Assembly: GCA_016184115.1 (NCBI GenBank)
Contig: JACPDH010000013.1
Span: 1 to 64,000 of the forward strand
Origin: Acidobacteriota bacterium
Lineage (GTDB): Bacteria; Acidobacteriota; Thermoanaerobaculia; Gp7-AA8
Reading direction: 5' to 3'
Length of the DNA: 64,000 nt
A program made the translations under genes and the position numbers. Positions 2,468-63,432 of this stretch are shown here, piece by piece. Within the stretch, counting starts at the first letter, position 1; every line of letters starts with the position of its first letter. The notes below the pieces were generated by a model that saw only the letters and a list, made by a program, of their open reading frames with translations, made no database searches and had not been told where the DNA came from.

Positions 2468-4588
2468 TCACGCTTCGCTCGGCCGCGATGCCGGCGAAGG
2501 TCGGGGATCGGCGGGAGACGATTCAGGATGTTCGAGGGGGAGGTGCACGGTGAACGTCGACCCTTCCCCTCGCCGTGACTGTACGTCGATCGCACCATGA
2601 TGGAGCTCGACGAAGTTGCGTGTGAGCGACAGGCCGAGGCCAGTCCCGCCTCGCTGCGCCCTGCGACCATCTTCGGTCTGATAGAACTCCTCGAAGATCT
2701 TGCGGAGCTCTCCTTCTTCCATGCCGATCCCGTGGTCGATGACGTCGATGCGGATCGAATCGCTGCGAATTCGCGATTCGATCGCGCTTCGGCGGGCGAC
2801 GCGGATCGTCACCGTGCCTCCACGATGCGAAAACTTCACTGCGTTAGACACGAGGTTGAAAAGGATCTGGCGGAGGCGTCCTTCGTCGAGCCTGAGGCGT
2901 GGCACGTCGGGCTCGACGTCGATCTCCAGCTTCACACCCTGCTGCTCCGCGTAGCTGTGCATGATGCGCTCGAGTGCAGCGAGAGCGTGTTGGACCTCGA
3001 ACTCATCAATGTGCAGCTCCATCTTTCCCGCTTCGATCTTCGAGAGGTCGAGGATGTCGTTGATCAACGTGAGCAGGTGCTCGCCTGCCGTTCGGATGTT
3101 GCGAACGAAACCGTGGCGCTGGTCGGAGATGAGCCCACGTGCCTTTTCGAGAAGGACGTCGGCGAATCCGACGACCGAGTTGAGCGGAGTGCGCAGCTCG
3201 TGCGACATGTTCGCGAGGAACTGGTTCTTCGAGCGGTCGGCGGCGAGGAGGCGGAGGTTCGTCTCGCGCAGCTCTGCCGTTCTCTCCTGGACGCGATGCT
3301 CGAGAGCGTAGGTGAGCCCCTCGAGGTCGCGGTAGAGGTTTGCGTTCTCGAGTGCGACGGCAGCCTGCGTCGCGATCGCGGTGAGCAGCAGCTCGTCTTC
3401 CTCGGTGAACACATCCTTTCGGTAGCTCTGGATCGAGATGACGCCGACGACGCGGTCGCGCGCGATCATCGGCACGCCGAGCCACGATTCGGTTTGGAGC
3501 CCGTCTTCGATCGACTGAACACCGATCGAGCGCTCCTCTTGGTTGCTCGCGAGACGGAGCGTCTTTCCATTGCGAATGACCCAGTCGTTGAGCCCTACGC
3601 CCATCGGAATCCGCTCCTTCGGCCTCCGCACTCCGTTGACGTACTCGATCTCGAACGCGAGCTCGTCGGTCGCCTCGTCGACGAGTGCAATCGAGAAGAG
3701 CGAGACGTCGACGACCTTCCGGCACTCGCGGAAGATCGTCTCGAGCAACTCGTCGGTCGTGAAGTTGAGCGAGATCGTCTTGCCTATGTTCGAAAGCGAT
3801 ACGAGCCGCTGAAGCTGGTGGCGTGTGCGGTAGCGTGCGTCGGCGAATCTTCGCGCGACGTAGTTGATCACGAGCGCGGAGAAGGCGAGCGCGTGAAAGC
3901 CTGCAAGCCCGAGGGTGGGTATGGAGAAGGTCATGAGAACGGCGTACGGAAGCGTGATGAAGTAGATCGACGCGTCGATTACGCTGATCCGCAGTCGCTT
4001 GTCGCGCGCATAGCCGTACCCGACCATCACCACTTCCATCAGAAGGTTGTTGGCCAGGATCAAAACGAGCCCACAGAGGACGATACGCGCTGCTTCGGCG
4101 GCTGTCGTCTCGACGCGAGGGGGCGTACCGCCGAGCACGACGAAGAGCAGCGACGCGCCAGCGACTGGAATGCCATAGGTCCCGGTTAGGCGCAGCGTGT
4201 TGACGATGCCAAACCAGGCAGAGCCTGGCAGGTTCCTGTCGCTCAGTGATGAGACGGCGCGTGCAGCCATCGCAGCGAGCACGGCGATCCAGCTCGAGAG
4301 CACCGGACCGAGGATGGGGAACATCGCAATGCAGCCGCTGATGACCATCGACACGAAGACGAGCCTGGTCAACTGAAACTTGAAGAGCCCGAGCATCGTG
4401 ATGAAGCCAAAGAAACTGAGGACGACGAGCGGTCCGAGGTCGCCGAGGTCGGCGTAGATCCTCTCGGTCTCCTCGGCGCGAAGGAACGTGACGGCGAGGA
4501 GCGTAACGACGCCCGCGATCGCCTGCACGACGAAGATCCGCATTACGCGGTCCTGGATCTCCTGCTCGGTGTGCAGAGTCGTCGACAT
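2468..4588 (-). CDS. Membrane-bound GAF sensor histidine kinase
   Basis: 706 aa. Residues about 15-245 contain seven or so hydrophobic segments forming an integral-membrane sensor region of no family I can name. A GAF domain follows (about 265-415, ending QAAVALENANLY), then a short coiled coil and a HisKA domain with the phospho-acceptor in MSHELRTPLN (His463). The HATPase domain carries the N box (NLVSNAVKFS), G1 (DHGIGM) and G2 (GGTGLGLSL). It should autophosphorylate and signal to a response regulator, but none is encoded next to it, so it is an orphan kinase here. The C-terminus is a Pro/Ser-rich tail that runs into the repeat element downstream. Confidence 0.92.
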   Translation of the reverse strand: MSTTLHTEQEIQDRVMRIFVVQAIAGVVTLLAVTFLRAEETERIYADLGDLGPLVVLSFFGFITMLGLFKFQLTRLVFVSMVISGCIAMFPILGPVLSSWIAVLAAMAARAVSSLSDRNLPGSAWFGIVNTLRLTGTYGIPVAGASLLFVVLGGTPPRVETTAAEAARIVLCGLVLILANNLLMEVVMVGYGYARDKRLRISVIDASIYFITLPYAVLMTFSIPTLGLAGFHALAFSALVINYVARRFADARYRTRHQLQRLVSLSNIGKTISLNFTTDELLETIFRECRKVVDVSLFSIALVDEATDELAFEIEYVNGVRRPKERIPMGVGLNDWVIRNGKTLRLASNQEERSIGVQSIEDGLQTESWLGVPMIARDRVVGVISIQSYRKDVFTEEDELLLTAIATQAAVALENANLYRDLEGLTYALEHRVQERTAELRETNLRLLAADRSKNQFLANMSHELRTPLNSVVGFADVLLEKARGLISDQRHGFVRNIRTAGEHLLTLINDILDLSKIEAGKMELHIDEFEVQHALAALERIMHSYAEQQGVKLEIDVEPDVPRLRLDEGRLRQILFNLVSNAVKFSHRGGTVTIRVARRSAIESRIRSDSIRIDVIDHGIGMEEGELRKIFEEFYQTEDGRRAQRGGTGLGLSLTRNFVELHHGAIDVQSRRGEGSTFTVHLPLEHPESSPADPRPSPASRPSEA

Positions 4589-23970: not shown

Positions 23971-24420
23971 GAGTCCTGGGTCCTGAGTCCTCAGTCCTGA
24001 GTGCTGAGTGCTGAGTCCTGAGTGCTGAGTCCTGAGTGCTGAGTTGGAGGGCGAAGTGCTGAGTTCTGGGTGCTAAGTGATGTGCGTTCGGTGCGTGAAG
24101 CCGATGAATTGAAATTTTCTTGGGATCGGTGGTGCACGTCGGGACTTCGCGTTCACTGGAAGTGTCTTAATCGCGCGCACTATCGCTCACCACCGAGTGC
24201 ACGGTGATCAGGACTCAGGACTTACGACTCAGGACTTAGGACTCAGGCCTTAGGACTTAGGCCTCAAGACTCAGGACTCAGGACTGAGGACTCAGAACTG
24301 AGGACTCAGAACTTAAGACTCAGGACTGAGGACTGAGGACTCAGGACTGCGGACTGAGGACTGAGGACTTAGGACTGAGGACTCAGGACTTAGGACTGAG
24401 GACTTAGGACTCAGAACCCC
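23971..24420. repeat. Heptad array pair: (NAGTCCT)n, spacer, (AGGACTN)30
   Basis: The left arm (23971 to about 24080) has ten units in register such as GAGTCCT, CAGTCCT and GAGTGCT, then degenerate ones. The spacer is about 130 nt. The right arm from 24210 to 24419 is about 30 consecutive AGGACTN units without a single insertion or deletion; the seventh base is C, T or G and never A. The arms are mutually complementary. The right arm runs into the 3' end of the DUF4149 gene, whose last codons and stop are made from it. The spacer has a small inverted repeat around GGTGGTGCAC / GTGCACGGTG. Confidence 0.93.
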
Positions 24421-32608: not shown

Positions 32609-32757
32609 GTGGATTTCGGATTTCGGATTTGAGAGTCGAAGCCTGCGCCGGAACTGCTGAAAGGCGAGCTCTGCGACCCCTTTCTGCGTCGTTGCGCCCA
32701 ACTGCGATTCGCCACAAAATTCGAAGTTCGAAATTCGAAATTCGAAATCCGAAATGA
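32609..32757. repeat. Heptad inverted repeat abutting the lhr start codon
   Basis: The left arm (32611-32640) has GGATTTC, GGATTTC, GGATTTG. The right arm (32716-32757) has AAAATTC, GAAGTTC, GAAATTC, GAAATTC, GAAATCC, GAAATGA in exact 7-nt register. The last unit contains the ATG start of lhr. The arms are inverse (GAAATCC units) around about 75 nt. The array occupies the place where a ribosome binding site should be, so lhr has no Shine-Dalgarno sequence. Confidence 0.78.
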
Positions 32758-44704: not shown

Positions 44705-45367
44705 TTACGAGACGTTCTCCAGATTGGATTGATTCTTTGGAGGGAATCGGTCGGTGGGACGACGCCCGCTCGGCGGCAGTACCTTGAGATTCCTGAGGTA
44801 TGCGCCGTAAGTCCAGAGCGGCACGAAGCGGAAGCAGTCGAGAAGCTCGAGCGTCATGCGCGCATGTTCGAGGCCGCGCGCAATCACCTCGTTGATCATG
44901 ATCTCGATCTGAAACCCTCGAAGCTTCTCGCGCGGGATTGCCTCGAAGACGCTTCGTTTCAGCGCGCGGAGACCGGTGATCGGCGGAAGACGGAGAAAGA
45001 TCGAATTCCGAGGCGTGCCGTAGTCGACGAGACCGCACGAGAGGTCGGCACAGCCGGTCAGCACCGGCTCGACGAGCGCCTCGAAGTGCGTCGGCGATGC
45101 GTTGAGGATGTCGCCGTCGAAGAAGACGAGGACCGCGGCCCGTGAGGCCGCGACGCCGGTGGCGAGCGCGAGCGCCTTGTCTCCTCGGCCGAATGAACGG
45201 ATCACATGTGCGCCCGCCGCCTGTGCGGCGGCCGCGGTGCCGTCGGAGGAGTCGTCGTCGACGACCCAGACTTTGCCGATGCCGCGTGCGGCGCAGGCAG
45301 GACGGACGACTCCCTCGATCGTCCGCGCCTCGTCGCGGGCGGGGATCACCACGTCATACAGATCCAC
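44705..45367 (-). CDS. Glycosyltransferase family 2
   Basis: 220 aa from GTG 45367. The GT-A core has VVIPARDEARTIEGVV, WVVDDDSSDGTAAAA and the metal motif FFDGDILNAS. The later GFQIEIMINEVIARG replaces the usual catalytic EMSD region and resembles small GT2 enzymes acting on lipid phosphate carriers or producing glucosyl-phosphoglycerate-like compounds. No membrane helices. The frame continues upstream to 45451, but those residues derive from the flank of a heptad array and read poorly. The acceptor is unknown. Confidence 0.83.
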   Translation of the reverse strand: MDLYDVVIPARDEARTIEGVVRPACAARGIGKVWVVDDDSSDGTAAAAQAAGAHVIRSFGRGDKALALATGVAASRAAVLVFFDGDILNASPTHFEALVEPVLTGCADLSCGLVDYGTPRNSIFLRLPPITGLRALKRSVFEAIPREKLRGFQIEIMINEVIARGLEHARMTLELLDCFRFVPLWTYGAYLRNLKVLPPSGRRPTDRFPPKNQSNLENVS

Positions 45368-45457
45368 GGTCTCGCGATGATAGCGCGAAGGGGAGATCGA
45401 CGCGAAAGGCGAAAGTTGGAGCGGCTCGCCTGAAACGGAAACGGAAGGCAACAGGCG

Positions 45458-45769
45458 GAGTCCTGAGTCCTCAGTCCTGAGTGCTGAGTCCTCAGTCCTG
45501 AGTCCTCAGTGCTGAGTGCTGATTGCTGGGCACTGGTCCTTCGCTCTGAGACCGTGTCGTCTCTTCTCATTTCGAGTCAAGTGTCTTTTCCCTTAGCTCC
45601 CTGAACCAAGGACTCAGGACCAAGGACTCGGGACTCAGGACTAACGACTAAGGACTGAGGACTCAGGACTAAGGACTAAGGACTAAGGACTCAGGACTGA
45701 GGACTCAGGACTAAGGACTAAGGACTCAGGACTGAGGACTCAGGACTGAGGACTCAGGACTCAGGACTG
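45458..45769. repeat. Heptad array pair: (NAGTCCT)11, spacer, (AGGACTN)23
   Basis: The left arm (45458 to about 45541) holds GAGTCCT, CAGTCCT and GAGTGCT units. The spacer is about 68 nt. The right arm from 45609 to 45769 has 23 AGGACTN units in perfect register, here with A, C and G as seventh base, then TCTTTTTC. With the flanks it occupies the 410-nt gap 45368-45777. On the minus strand the long arm follows the FmdB stop by 8 nt, and the short arm ends just upstream of the GT2 gene. Confidence 0.92.
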
Positions 45770-45777
45770 TCTTTTTC

Positions 45778-46308
45778 TTAAAGCGAATAGAGCGTCTCGT
45801 CGCGAAGTGGAGGCCGCCGCCGGCTCTTCCACTTCATCCGTCCTTCTTTCGTGAGTGGAGACTCGTCGTCGCCGAAAGGCATTTCCGACTCGAGCCGGTC
45901 GCCTAGCTCTTCGTCGATCACGTCGGGATCCTCTCCCGCTTCCATGCGCCGCATCGCTTCCTCCATCGCAGGCCCGACCGGAAGATCGGCGGAGCCATAG
46001 AGGCGGCGGAGGAAGCCTGCCATCTGTCGTGGATCGTTTTCGTCGAGCGACTCGGCGTCGGAGGCGAGCGACTCCATCGCGCGCATCATCTGCTCTTCCT
46101 GCGGCGAGGGCGGCTCGTCGCTGCCGCCTCCCGGCCGCGCGGTGGACGGGTCGGGAAGGCCCCTCGAGATCGCGAAGCGCGAGACCTGGCGCTCGAGCGC
46201 GGCGCGCGCACACTTCGGGCACTTTGGCACTGTCGTCGTATCGACGCGCGCAGAGAGGAAGCTGAAGATCGTGTGGCAGTCAGGGCAGTAGAACTCGTAG
46301 ATTGGCAT
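45778..46308 (-). CDS. FmdB-type zinc-ribbon protein
   Basis: 176 aa. The N-terminal 45 residues form the FmdB/CxxC_CxxC_SSSS zinc ribbon: MPIYEFYCPDCHTIFSF and KCPKCARAALERQVSRFAIS. The rest is acidic and helical (QMMRAMESLASDAESLDEND, AMRRMEAGEDPDVIDEELGD), an extension seen in several such regulators. FmdB proteins are annotated as regulators on thin evidence; binding partners are unknown. Divergent from the kinase fusion gene. The stop is followed by a heptad array. Confidence 0.87.
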   Translation of the reverse strand: MPIYEFYCPDCHTIFSFLSARVDTTTVPKCPKCARAALERQVSRFAISRGLPDPSTARPGGGSDEPPSPQEEQMMRAMESLASDAESLDENDPRQMAGFLRRLYGSADLPVGPAMEEAMRRMEAGEDPDVIDEELGDRLESEMPFGDDESPLTKEGRMKWKSRRRPPLRDETLYSL

Positions 46309-53461: not shown

Positions 53462-53694
53462 TAGTCCTGAGTCCTGAGTCCTTAGTCCTGAGTCCTGAGT
53501 CCCTAGTCTTGAGTCCTGAGTCCTGAGTCCTTAGTCCTTAGTCCTCAGTTCTGACTCTTGAGTCCTCAGTACCGAATATCCAATATCCTCTCAAAGATTG
53601 TGAGCGACGGGCTCTGAATTTCAAGGACACGCGTCACCGATTGCCTCACTTGGTACTCAGGACTCAGCACTCAGGACTGAGGACTCAGCACTCC
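53462..53694. repeat. Heptad array pair between dapB and dapA
   Basis: From 53462 to 53573 sixteen 7-nt units run in register: TAGTCCT, GAGTCCT, CAGTTCT and similar. The spacer is about 80 nt and includes CGAATATCCAATATCC. The inverse arm (53653-53694) has six units such as GGACTCA and GCACTCA. The right arm reaches the dapB stop at 53694, the left arm ends 6 nt before the dapA start on the coding strand. The element therefore separates two genes of one pathway. Confidence 0.9.
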
Positions 53695-61857: not shown

Positions 61858-63378
61858 ATGCCGATTCCTGAACCGCCCGACGTCTCCTATTGGGACGCGT
61901 CACCGGCACTCCGTGAGCTCCTCTCGGCAAAACTGAATCGGGCCGATCTCGACTGGGCAGCGCCGCAGCTCGCTGCGATGGGGGATGCCGCGGCGCGGAC
62001 GGTTGCCCCACTCGCCGCGATCGCCGATCGCGAGAGCCCGCGCCTCGTCACGCACGACCCGCGCGGGAACCGCGTAGACCGCATCGACTACCACCCCTCC
62101 TACCGCGAGATGCAGCGACTGGCCTACGGCTCGGGGATGGTCGGGATGAAGTACGACGAGACGACGCTCGCCGCGCATCCCGCCGCCGTGCAGCTCACGG
62201 GATTTGCGTTAGGCTATCTCTTCGCGATGGCCGAGATGGGGCTTTATTGTCCCGTCTGCATGACCGACGGAGTCGCGCGAATTCTCACGCTCCACGGAGG
62301 GCGCGAGCGCTTCGGCGCGACGATCGACCGGCTCGCGTCGACGAGGCTCGAGAGCCTCTGGACGGGCGCGATGTTCCTCACCGAGAAGACCGGTGGATCC
62401 GACGTCGGCGCGAACGAGACGATCGCGCGGCGGGACGCTTCGGGCGGCTGGAGCCTCACCGGCACGAAGTGGTTCTGCTCGAACGTCGATGCCGGTGCGA
62501 TTCTCGCGACGGCGCGCCCCGAAGGCGGAGCCGCCGGGACGAAAGGGCTGAGAACCTGGCTGATTCTCCGTGAGCAGGCGCAGGGGCTGACGATCGACCG
62601 GATCAAGGAGAAGTTAGGCGTGCGGTCGATGCCGACGGGGGAGGTCATGCTCGATTCTGTTCCGGCGGAGGAGGTCGGCGACTTTCATTCGATCGCGGAG
62701 ATGCTGAACCTCTCACGACTCTACAACTCGGTCGCCGCGATTGCGGTGATGGGACGCGCGATCCTCGAGGCGCGGCATTACATCGAGCGTCGCCGCGCGT
62801 TCGGAAAGCCGGTGATCGAACATGCACTCGCCCGGGAGACGCTGCTCGATGCCGAGGCCGAGCAGCTCGGCGCGCTCTACCTGACGTTCGAGACGGTCGA
62901 GCTGCTGGGCAAGGCCGATCGCGGCGACGAGCGCGCCGCACGCGAGAGGCGGTTCCTCACTCCCGTCGTGAAGGCGGTCACCGGCAAGCTCGCAGTGCCC
63001 GTCGCCTCCGAGTGCATGGAGCTGATCGGCGGCAACGCCTACATCGAGGAGTCGCCTCTGCCGCGGCTCCTGCGCGACGCGCAGGTGCTTCCGATCTGGG
63101 AAGGGACGACGAACATTCTCGCCCTCGACGCACTTCGCGCCGCGAAGAAGGACGCGGGGCATCTCGTCACGCTCGAGCGGATCGCAAAGGTGCTTCCGGG
63201 CGAAGCGATGGCGCTGGAAGACGCGTTTTCGACGATCGACGAGCGGCAGGCGCGCGGCTGGATGGACAACTTCGCCCGCGCGCTCGAGATCGCGCTGCTG
63301 CGCGAAGCGGGAGACGACGTGGCCGCCGAACGCCTTCAGCGCCGCCCGTTAGGCCTCGTGCCGGGCGCGTTCGTGTGA
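61858..63378 (+). CDS. AidB-like acyl-CoA dehydrogenase
   Basis: 506 aa. Acyl-CoA dehydrogenase layout: FLTEKTGGSDVGANETIA (FAD/substrate loop), WSLTGTKWFCSNVDA, LGVRSMPTGEVMLD, and the helical C-terminal domain with RRRAFGKPVIEHALARE and NAYIEESPLPRLLRDAQVLPIWEGTTNI split by the expected spacing. The N-terminal about 150 residues (YGSGMVGMKYDETTLAAHP) and the YHPSYREMQRLAY stretch are typical of the AidB branch, whose true substrate is unsettled. GGAGGTGATCC just before the ATG is an almost full match to the anti-Shine-Dalgarno sequence, so translation should be strong. The stop is the first part of a heptad array. Confidence 0.92.
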   Translation: MPIPEPPDVSYWDASPALRELLSAKLNRADLDWAAPQLAAMGDAAARTVAPLAAIADRESPRLVTHDPRGNRVDRIDYHPSYREMQRLAYGSGMVGMKYDETTLAAHPAAVQLTGFALGYLFAMAEMGLYCPVCMTDGVARILTLHGGRERFGATIDRLASTRLESLWTGAMFLTEKTGGSDVGANETIARRDASGGWSLTGTKWFCSNVDAGAILATARPEGGAAGTKGLRTWLILREQAQGLTIDRIKEKLGVRSMPTGEVMLDSVPAEEVGDFHSIAEMLNLSRLYNSVAAIAVMGRAILEARHYIERRRAFGKPVIEHALARETLLDAEAEQLGALYLTFETVELLGKADRGDERAARERRFLTPVVKAVTGKLAVPVASECMELIGGNAYIEESPLPRLLRDAQVLPIWEGTTNILALDALRAAKKDAGHLVTLERIAKVLPGEAMALEDAFSTIDERQARGWMDNFARALEIALLREAGDDVAAERLQRRPLGLVPGAFV

Positions 63379-63432
63379 GTCCTGAGTCCTGAGTCCTGAG
63401 TGCTCAGTCCTCAGTCCTGAGTCCTGAGTGCT
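63377..63432 (+). repeat. Heptad array (NAGTCCT)8 starting at a stop codon
   Basis: Eight 7-nt units in register: GAGTCCT three times, GAGTGCT, CAGTCCT twice, GAGTCCT, GAGTGCT. The first unit begins inside the TGA of the acyl-CoA dehydrogenase gene. Unlike the other three arrays of this class no inverse arm follows nearby; about 80 nt later the GAANNNN element at 63515 begins. Confidence 0.88.

What the first reader, a model, noticed from the sequence alone, without database searches (positions are those of the whole stretch)
45458..45769. Second AGTCCT-class array pair, 23 units on one side, 11 on the other
Same unit as at 23971 but with A allowed as seventh base, and unequal arm lengths. 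The long arm starts 8 nt after the FmdB stop on the coding strand, the short arm lies just upstream of the GT2 gene in the same direction. The order stop codon, long array, spacer, inverse array is thus repeated at independent loci, suggesting a defined 3'-UTR or inter-cistronic element.
Basis: partly seen in the sequence, partly recalled or inferred. Interest (0 to 1): 0.7.

Follow-up and report, generated by a model that had tools for sequence, protein, structure and literature searches.

The report
Heptamer-stem hairpins linked to IVP genes
The paired arrays of seven-base repeats are the two arms of a long hairpin, one of about 26 in this genome, and the same kind of hairpin surrounds a widespread gene of unknown function (the "23S rRNA intervening-sequence" four-helix-bundle gene) in most of the bacteria examined, which points to a large and so far unrecognised family of probably selfish genetic elements.

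Summary
In detail: 9 clear plus about 2 decayed AGTCCTN units from 45459, an ~88-nt loop, then 23 NAGGACT units (45609-45768), 9 nt beyond the FmdB stop. In this genome 26 of 26 such pairs point inward (AGTCCT then AGGACT). The key lies outside the window. At C59:37932-38672 of the same genome the same two arms enclose a PF05635/TIGR02436 gene (23S rRNA IVP, "four helix bundle protein"). IVP genes generally sit inside inverted heptamer arrays. Among IVP loci from Gammaproteobacteria sampled without regard to repeats, 26 of 29 have inverted flanks (2% at distal controls) and 72% have period-7 arrays; no other period from 5 to 11 occurs. The heptamer differs between loci, yet both arms change together at orthologous loci (10 of 28 pairs, 0/500 shuffles). 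Arm order of IVP-less pairs equals that around the IVP gene in three lineages. In the sister species 10 of 11 testable sites carry a heptamer hairpin, 7 with a different heptamer. Best reading: an IVP-less member of a widespread selfish hairpin family, comparable to REPINs and their RAYTs. Mobility and the role of IVP are inferred. The 3'-UTR idea is partly supported: position is conserved, function untested.

The parts
45459..45520 (+). Short arm: 9 units AGT(C/G)CT(G/C); about 2 decayed units follow to ~45534
45521..45608 (.). Loop/spacer of 88 nt, no IVP gene, no similarity to other loops
45609..45768 (+). Long arm: 23 units (N)AGGACT, inverse complement of the short arm
   Evidence: RNA fold of the minus strand -163 kcal/mol, z -8.4
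45778..46308 (-). Upstream neighbour: FmdB-family zinc ribbon protein (TIGR02605), stop 9 nt from the long arm
44705..45451 (-). Downstream neighbour: family 2 glycosyltransferase (PF00535); true start uncertain (45451 or ~45374)
23972..24411 (.). Sister element: AGTCCT array 23972-24040, loop 169, AGGACT array 24210-24411, between convergent genes
53463..53692 (.). Sister element: AGTCCT array 53463-53566, loop 92, AGGACT array 53659-53692
63378..63432 (+). Single AGTCCT array (8 units) without a detected partner

Best explanation
The array pair is the stem of a long hairpin element that belongs to a widespread family of heptamer-stem elements. In the full form two inverted arrays of a 7-nt unit enclose a gene for a 23S rRNA IVP / four helix bundle protein (PF05635, TIGR02436). 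The pair at 45459-45768 is an IVP-less copy whose cognate full copy is at G000:C59:37932-38672. SHOWN: the anatomy, the genome-wide inward arm order, the association of IVP genes with inverted period-7 arms, joint change of both arms, and the match between arm order of solo pairs and of the IVP element. INFERRED: the pairs spread as selfish, REPIN-like miniature elements with help from an IVP protein that recognises the heptamer stem; arms grow and shrink by slippage while complementarity is kept; insertion between ORFs is tolerated because the transcript folds into a long double-stranded stem that RNase III can cut, as reported for the Coxiella 23S rRNA IVS (PMC4990558).
For: 26/26 pairs in AGTCCT..AGGACT order. 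IVP gene between the same arms (E=2.5e-32). Gammaproteobacteria unselected for repeats: inverted flanks 26/29, period-7 on at least one side 72%, periods 5, 6 and 8-11 0%; adjacent flanks 91% and 96% inverted versus 2% and 4% at distal flanks of the same loci, in Gammaproteobacteria and in the own family. Arm order of solo pairs = arm order around the IVP gene in three lineages with different orders: G000 F..R (26/26); G298/G299 R..F (11/11); Blastocatellia SSF51 R..F. Orthologous IVP loci with both arms changed; 10 of 28 stem pairs changed on both sides, 0/500 shuffles. IVP relatedness predicts the heptamer (Mantel r 0.23, p 0.0005). Two hairpins 9.7 kb apart share a 76-nt loop stretch at 91%, inverted: a copied element. 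G300 AGTTGTT hairpins: all 13 complete ones inward, with recurrent inner ends AGACAGGC..GCCTGTCT.
Against: No insertion with clean empty site or target duplication was seen; 10 of 11 sister-species sites are occupied, so movement is not directly shown. Most loops are unique, which fits decayed loops but also in-situ growth. The link between heptamer and IVP clade is partial: 19 changes on the tree versus 22.4 shuffled, 0/200 as low. No IVP with AGTTGTT arms was found in G300 although that is its commonest heptamer. Arms are not closer to their own partner than to other loci's arms.
Confidence: 0.75

Rival explanations
1. Domesticated intercistronic/3'-UTR structure: the hairpins serve the host as bidirectional terminators or RNase III processing and mRNA-stability sites at gene ends, and selection keeps a hairpin at each site while its sequence drifts.
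For: Sites conserved in the sister species with changed heptamer but preserved pairing; placement right at stop codons, depletion from divergent promoter regions; strong fold.
Against: Same anatomy around IVP genes in many phyla suggests the element came first; no T-tract terminator at the focal hairpin; avoidance of promoters is also expected of a selfish element; no neighbour function in common was noticed.
Confidence: 0.3
2. Plain microsatellite: replication slippage in intergenic DNA without any element behind it.
For: Unit number varies widely and single arrays occur; arms vary independently in unit order.
Against: Cannot give 26/26 inward pairs, conserved sites, an exclusive 7-nt period next to IVP genes, or joint change of both arms.
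Confidence: 0.03
3. Reverse-transcriptase based rewriting: IVP is a distant relative of the DGR accessory protein Avd, so an RT could copy heptamers from a template RNA into target arrays.
For: IVP gives a weak match to the Avd model NF033474 (E=7e-4, far below its cut-off); sites keep position but change heptamer.
Against: No RVT_1 in the own genome (97% complete) or in G300 (90%).
Confidence: 0.03
4. Mobilisation by a host or IS-encoded transposase (such as a Y1/RAYT enzyme) with IVP as passenger.
For: Architecture resembles REPINs: two inverted repeats around a variable loop.
Confidence: 0.12

Closest known systems
23S rRNA intervening sequences with an IVP/S23p ORF (Coxiella, Leptospira; PMC4990558)
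   Same: IVP gene inside an inverted-repeat stem; the Coxiella IVS has 2-3 tandem GACAGAT heptamers just upstream of the ORF with strain-dependent copy number; called selfish; RNase III cuts the stem in vitro.
   Different: There the element sits in 23S rRNA. Here arms are heptamer arrays at intergenic protein-gene sites, in many copies, most without the ORF.
Xanthomonas GGGAATC heptamer repeats (Rehm et al. 2015, PMC4692102)
   Same: Intergenic heptamer arrays, 70-75 convergent inverted pairs per genome, close behind ORFs, rare between divergent genes.
   Different: Other heptamer; interpreted as G-quadruplexes; no link to IVP made. Xanthomonas does encode an IVP (XCC0516, PDB 2gsc), whose flanks I could not inspect.
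REPIN/RAYT system
   Same: Miniature inverted-repeat elements with variable loop, dispersed in one genome, with a cognate gene flanked by the same repeats.
   Different: Arms are tandem heptamer arrays, not single palindromic REPs; the gene is a four-helix bundle, not a Y1 transposase.
TAACTGA direct repeats of Beggiatoaceae and cyanobacterial heptamer repeats (PMC4679880)
   Same: Intergenic heptamer arrays scattered across phyla.
   Different: Almost only direct repeats near start codons; one inverted case; no cognate gene proposed.
Diversity-generating retroelement accessory protein Avd
   Same: Same four-helix-bundle superfamily by weak profile match.
   Different: No RT nearby or in the genome; IVP matches TIGR02436/PF05635 far better.

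Membership tests
IVP (PF05635/TIGR02436) heptamer-stem element, as defined here | Two inverted arrays of a 7-nt unit around a loop | tested here: met
IVP (PF05635/TIGR02436) heptamer-stem element, as defined here | IVP gene between the arms | tested here: not met
   The focal loop is 88 nt without ORF; the same arms enclose an IVP gene elsewhere in the genome. Hence 'IVP-less relative', not a full member.
IVP (PF05635/TIGR02436) heptamer-stem element, as defined here | Same unit and same arm order as the resident IVP element | tested here: met
   F..R in 26/26 pairs including the IVP copy
23S rRNA intervening sequence | Insertion in 23S rRNA | tested here: not met
   Lies between FmdB and GT2 genes; no Rfam match in the window
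REPIN/RAYT | Cognate Y1 transposase | not tested
REPIN/RAYT | Inverted repeat pair with variable loop, many copies per genome | tested here: met
Diversity-generating retroelement | Reverse transcriptase in the genome | tested here: not met
   no PF00078 match in G000 or G300
Rho-independent terminator | GC-rich stem directly followed by a T-run on the transcript strand | tested here: not met
   only a weak plus-strand match inside the loop; none for the minus-strand transcript
Mobile element | Empty site or target-site duplication | tested here: inconclusive
   one of 11 sites lacks heptamers in the sister species, no clean junction

The most novel reading that the evidence does not exclude
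A categorically new and very widespread class of selfish element: an IVP protein specifies a 7-nt unit and spreads or rewrites it in both arms of hairpins all over the genome, so that the heptamer of whole sets of hairpins at conserved sites turns over while the hairpins stay. This would give the long-mysterious IVP/four-helix-bundle family its function and unite 23S rRNA IVSs, Xanthomonas and other intergenic heptamer repeats.
Probability: 0.35. Interest if true: 0.92.

Novelty: new variant of a known kind. Interest (0 to 1): 0.78.

Why it matters
PF05635/TIGR02436 is a common family without known function, and intergenic heptamer repeats in Xanthomonas, cyanobacteria, Beggiatoaceae and others have no accepted explanation. 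The data here tie the two together in several phyla with a strong internal control (period 7 only, adjacent flanks only) and show joint change of the two arms. That turns two old puzzles (what IVP does, and where bacterial heptamer repeats come from) into one testable question. I found no paper in the open-access library that makes this link.

Tried and rejected
Rfam scan of the window: no match. The tool's control pattern (read backwards) is not a valid control here because AGGACTC arrays also match it. Loop homology among own elements: only one pair related. Loop homology between orthologous sites in G000 and G300: none (diagonal 8.3, off-diagonal 9.2), so arms were not simply swapped around a kept loop, or the loops have diverged beyond recognition. 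Arm-to-own-partner similarity in unit order: none (perm p 0.94). RT-based mechanism: no RT. IVP in phage records: none; on plasmids 23 records, mostly cyanobacterial. A strict 'one IVP clade, one heptamer' rule: only partly true. Heptamers as in-frame stop arrays: stop triplets somewhat above shuffled expectation (54 versus 34.8 of 90), not pursued.

Full report
OBSERVATION. Three AGGACT units in register occur 34 times in the window and never in 100 dinucleotide shuffles. The minus-strand transcript folds at -163 kcal/mol, z -8.4. The neighbours are an FmdB-type zinc ribbon protein and a family 2 glycosyltransferase, both on the minus strand.

THE GENOME. The window is contig C8 of a 4.42-Mb draft genome. 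Its taxonomic family includes a genome whose IVP matches have the same coordinates as those of Acidobacteria bacterium BP6.bin107 (G029, G343), so I take the host to be an acidobacterium (inference). A BLAST with 91 nt of the array finds 86 places in about 35 loci. In the fetched loci there are 26 pairs, and all 26 run AGTCCT array, loop, AGGACT array. This order is unchanged by reverse complementing, so agreement is not trivial. Loops are 0-500 nt, typically 80-180. Elements fill the gap between ORFs almost completely, commonly 0-12 nt from each neighbour: 23 codirectional, 9 convergent, 1 divergent, against 120, 31 and 36 for all neighbouring genes of these loci.

THE CLUE. One loop, at C59 (L175 3530-4031), is 502 nt long and encodes a protein that matches PF05635, 23S rRNA intervening sequence protein, at E=2.5e-32, TIGR02436 'four helix bundle protein' at 1e-29, and the pentameric XCC0516 of Xanthomonas (PDB 2gsc) at 1.9e-14. 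The genome has five such genes. Around PF05635 genes of the 18 genomes in the family, including genomes without any AGGACT array, period-7 arrays in inverted orientation stand on both sides, each locus with its own unit (for example AGCTCTT|AAGAGCT, AACCGTT|AACGGTT).

TEST AND CONTROLS. In 95 loci the best inverted alignment of the two 300-nt flanks reached 14 in 82%, direct alignment 16%, swapped partners 5%, random segments 0.7%. Period-7 was the only period clearly enriched apart from its multiple 14. A sample unselected for repeats, 274 Gammaproteobacteria genomes of which 57 have the family, gave 29 loci: 26 with inverted flanks, 72% with a period-7 array on at least one side, 0% for periods 5, 6, 8, 9, 10 and 11. 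Within the same loci, adjacent flanks are inverted in 91% (Gammaproteobacteria) and 96% (own family), flanks 500-1200 nt away in 2% and 4%. Loci that had been picked by the heptamer alone led back to IVP genes between the arms in Methylobacillus (L092) and Flavobacterium (L142), and near them in Thiohalophilus (L101).

SOLO PAIRS BELONG TO IVP ELEMENTS. Arm order is a lineage trait shared by solo pairs and the IVP element of the same genome: G000 AGTCCT first in all pairs and around its IVP gene; genus g169 (G298, G299) AGGACT first in 11 of 11 solo pairs and around the IVP gene at G298:C464; Blastocatellia SSF51 AGGACT first in its five clear solo pairs and around the IVP gene of L257. IVP relatedness predicts the heptamer: of protein pairs at 55-70% identity, 34.5% share at least 6 of 7 positions, against about 2% at lower identity, and only in the same strand sense (Mantel r 0.23, p 0.0005). 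On a tree the signal is real but partial (19 changes versus 22.4 shuffled, 0 of 200 as low).

BOTH ARMS CHANGE TOGETHER. An IVP gene between an ABC-transporter ATPase and a MacB-like permease (names by eye) is conserved in seven genomes of the family. Its arms are AGTGCTG, AGTACTG, AGTCCTG, GGTGCTG or AGGACTG according to species, and each time the other arm carries the complement. Aligned by hand in register, 10 of 28 pairs have changes on both sides and 91% of cells pair; no shuffle and no slid register comes close. Other orthologous loci replaced the unit altogether: L177 AGTCCTG versus L202 GGGCGCT, L181 versus L182, L184/L201/L186, and L220 versus L221 with IVP proteins 89% identical. Orthologous-locus IVPs group together on the tree as far as it resolves.

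SISTER SPECIES. For 11 own elements both flanks lie on one contig of G300 (same genus). Ten sites carry a heptamer hairpin there too, but in seven the unit differs, mostly AGTTGTT..AACAACT. At the focal site the G300 contig ends about 130 nt behind FmdB within AGGCGAG- and AATGNNG-type heptamers, so the pair cannot be seen whole. Two readings remain: sites are hot spots that are invaded again and again, or hairpins stay and their units turn over. Nested cases (an AATGAGG pair inside an AGTTGTT pair in L367, an AGTGCTG array inside another in L368) favour repeated invasion; joint arm change at IVP loci favours turnover.

MECHANISM. I commit to a selfish, REPIN-like hairpin family with IVP as the cognate protein. 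Shown: anatomy, association, order, joint change, one copied element with loop (L157 2769 and 12513, 91% over 76 nt, inverted). Inferred: spread in trans, heptamer recognition by IVP, and tolerance through RNase III cutting, which has been shown in vitro for the Coxiella IVS, where 2-3 GACAGAT heptamers precede the S23p ORF and vary in number among strains (PMC4990558). An RT-based route is unlikely because neither G000 nor G300 has an RVT_1 gene.

PRIOR WORK. Rehm et al. (PMC4692102) described GGGAATC arrays in Xanthomonas, with 70-75 convergent inverted pairs, behind ORFs and rare between divergent genes; this looks like the same kind of thing, in a genus with a solved IVP. MacGregor (PMC4679880) described TAACTGA repeats. 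Neither mentions IVP. No paper found links the two; only open-access papers could be searched.

LIMITS. Draft genomes; start codons and ORF calls by a simple script; arms of the covariation set aligned by hand; part of the IVP loci come from genomes chosen for AGGACT arrays (the Gammaproteobacteria set does not). Mobility, IVP function and any effect on FmdB or GT2 expression are untested.

Noticed in passing
window 32717-32755: A short period-7 array with a different unit (AAATTCG, 5.6 copies, TRF score 64).
   Followed up: no
L157 2769-3046 and 12513-12776 (G000:C34): Two hairpins 9.7 kb apart share the same loop (91% over 76 nt) in opposite orientation: a copied or inverted element.
   Followed up: partly
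L356-L371, L285, L289 (G300): AGTTGTT hairpins of the sister species mostly have inner loop ends AGACAGGC..GCCTGTCT but unrelated loop interiors, some holding another heptamer hairpin.
   Followed up: partly
L160 136-330, L149 ~3300-3480, L161 846-960: Arrays run into arrays of other heptamers (GGGTGCT, CAGTAGT, GAGAGCT), a mosaic of unit types at one site.
   Followed up: no
L166, L167, L168 (G000 C81, C118, C117): The same left flank and array start with different right flanks at contig ends: strain variation or assembly joins inside arrays.
   Followed up: no
all IVP loci, upstream arm: The arm upstream of the IVP gene is G-rich on the sense strand (G 37%, C 14%; 78 of 87 skewed arms have more G than C).
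   Followed up: partly
L329 (Riemerella anatipestifer plasmid) and cyanobacterial plasmids: IVP genes also occur on plasmids (23 records); none found in phage records.
   Followed up: no
L176 1498-1824 and six orthologues: An IVP element kept between an ABC ATPase and a MacB-like permease gene in seven genomes of the family.
   Followed up: yes
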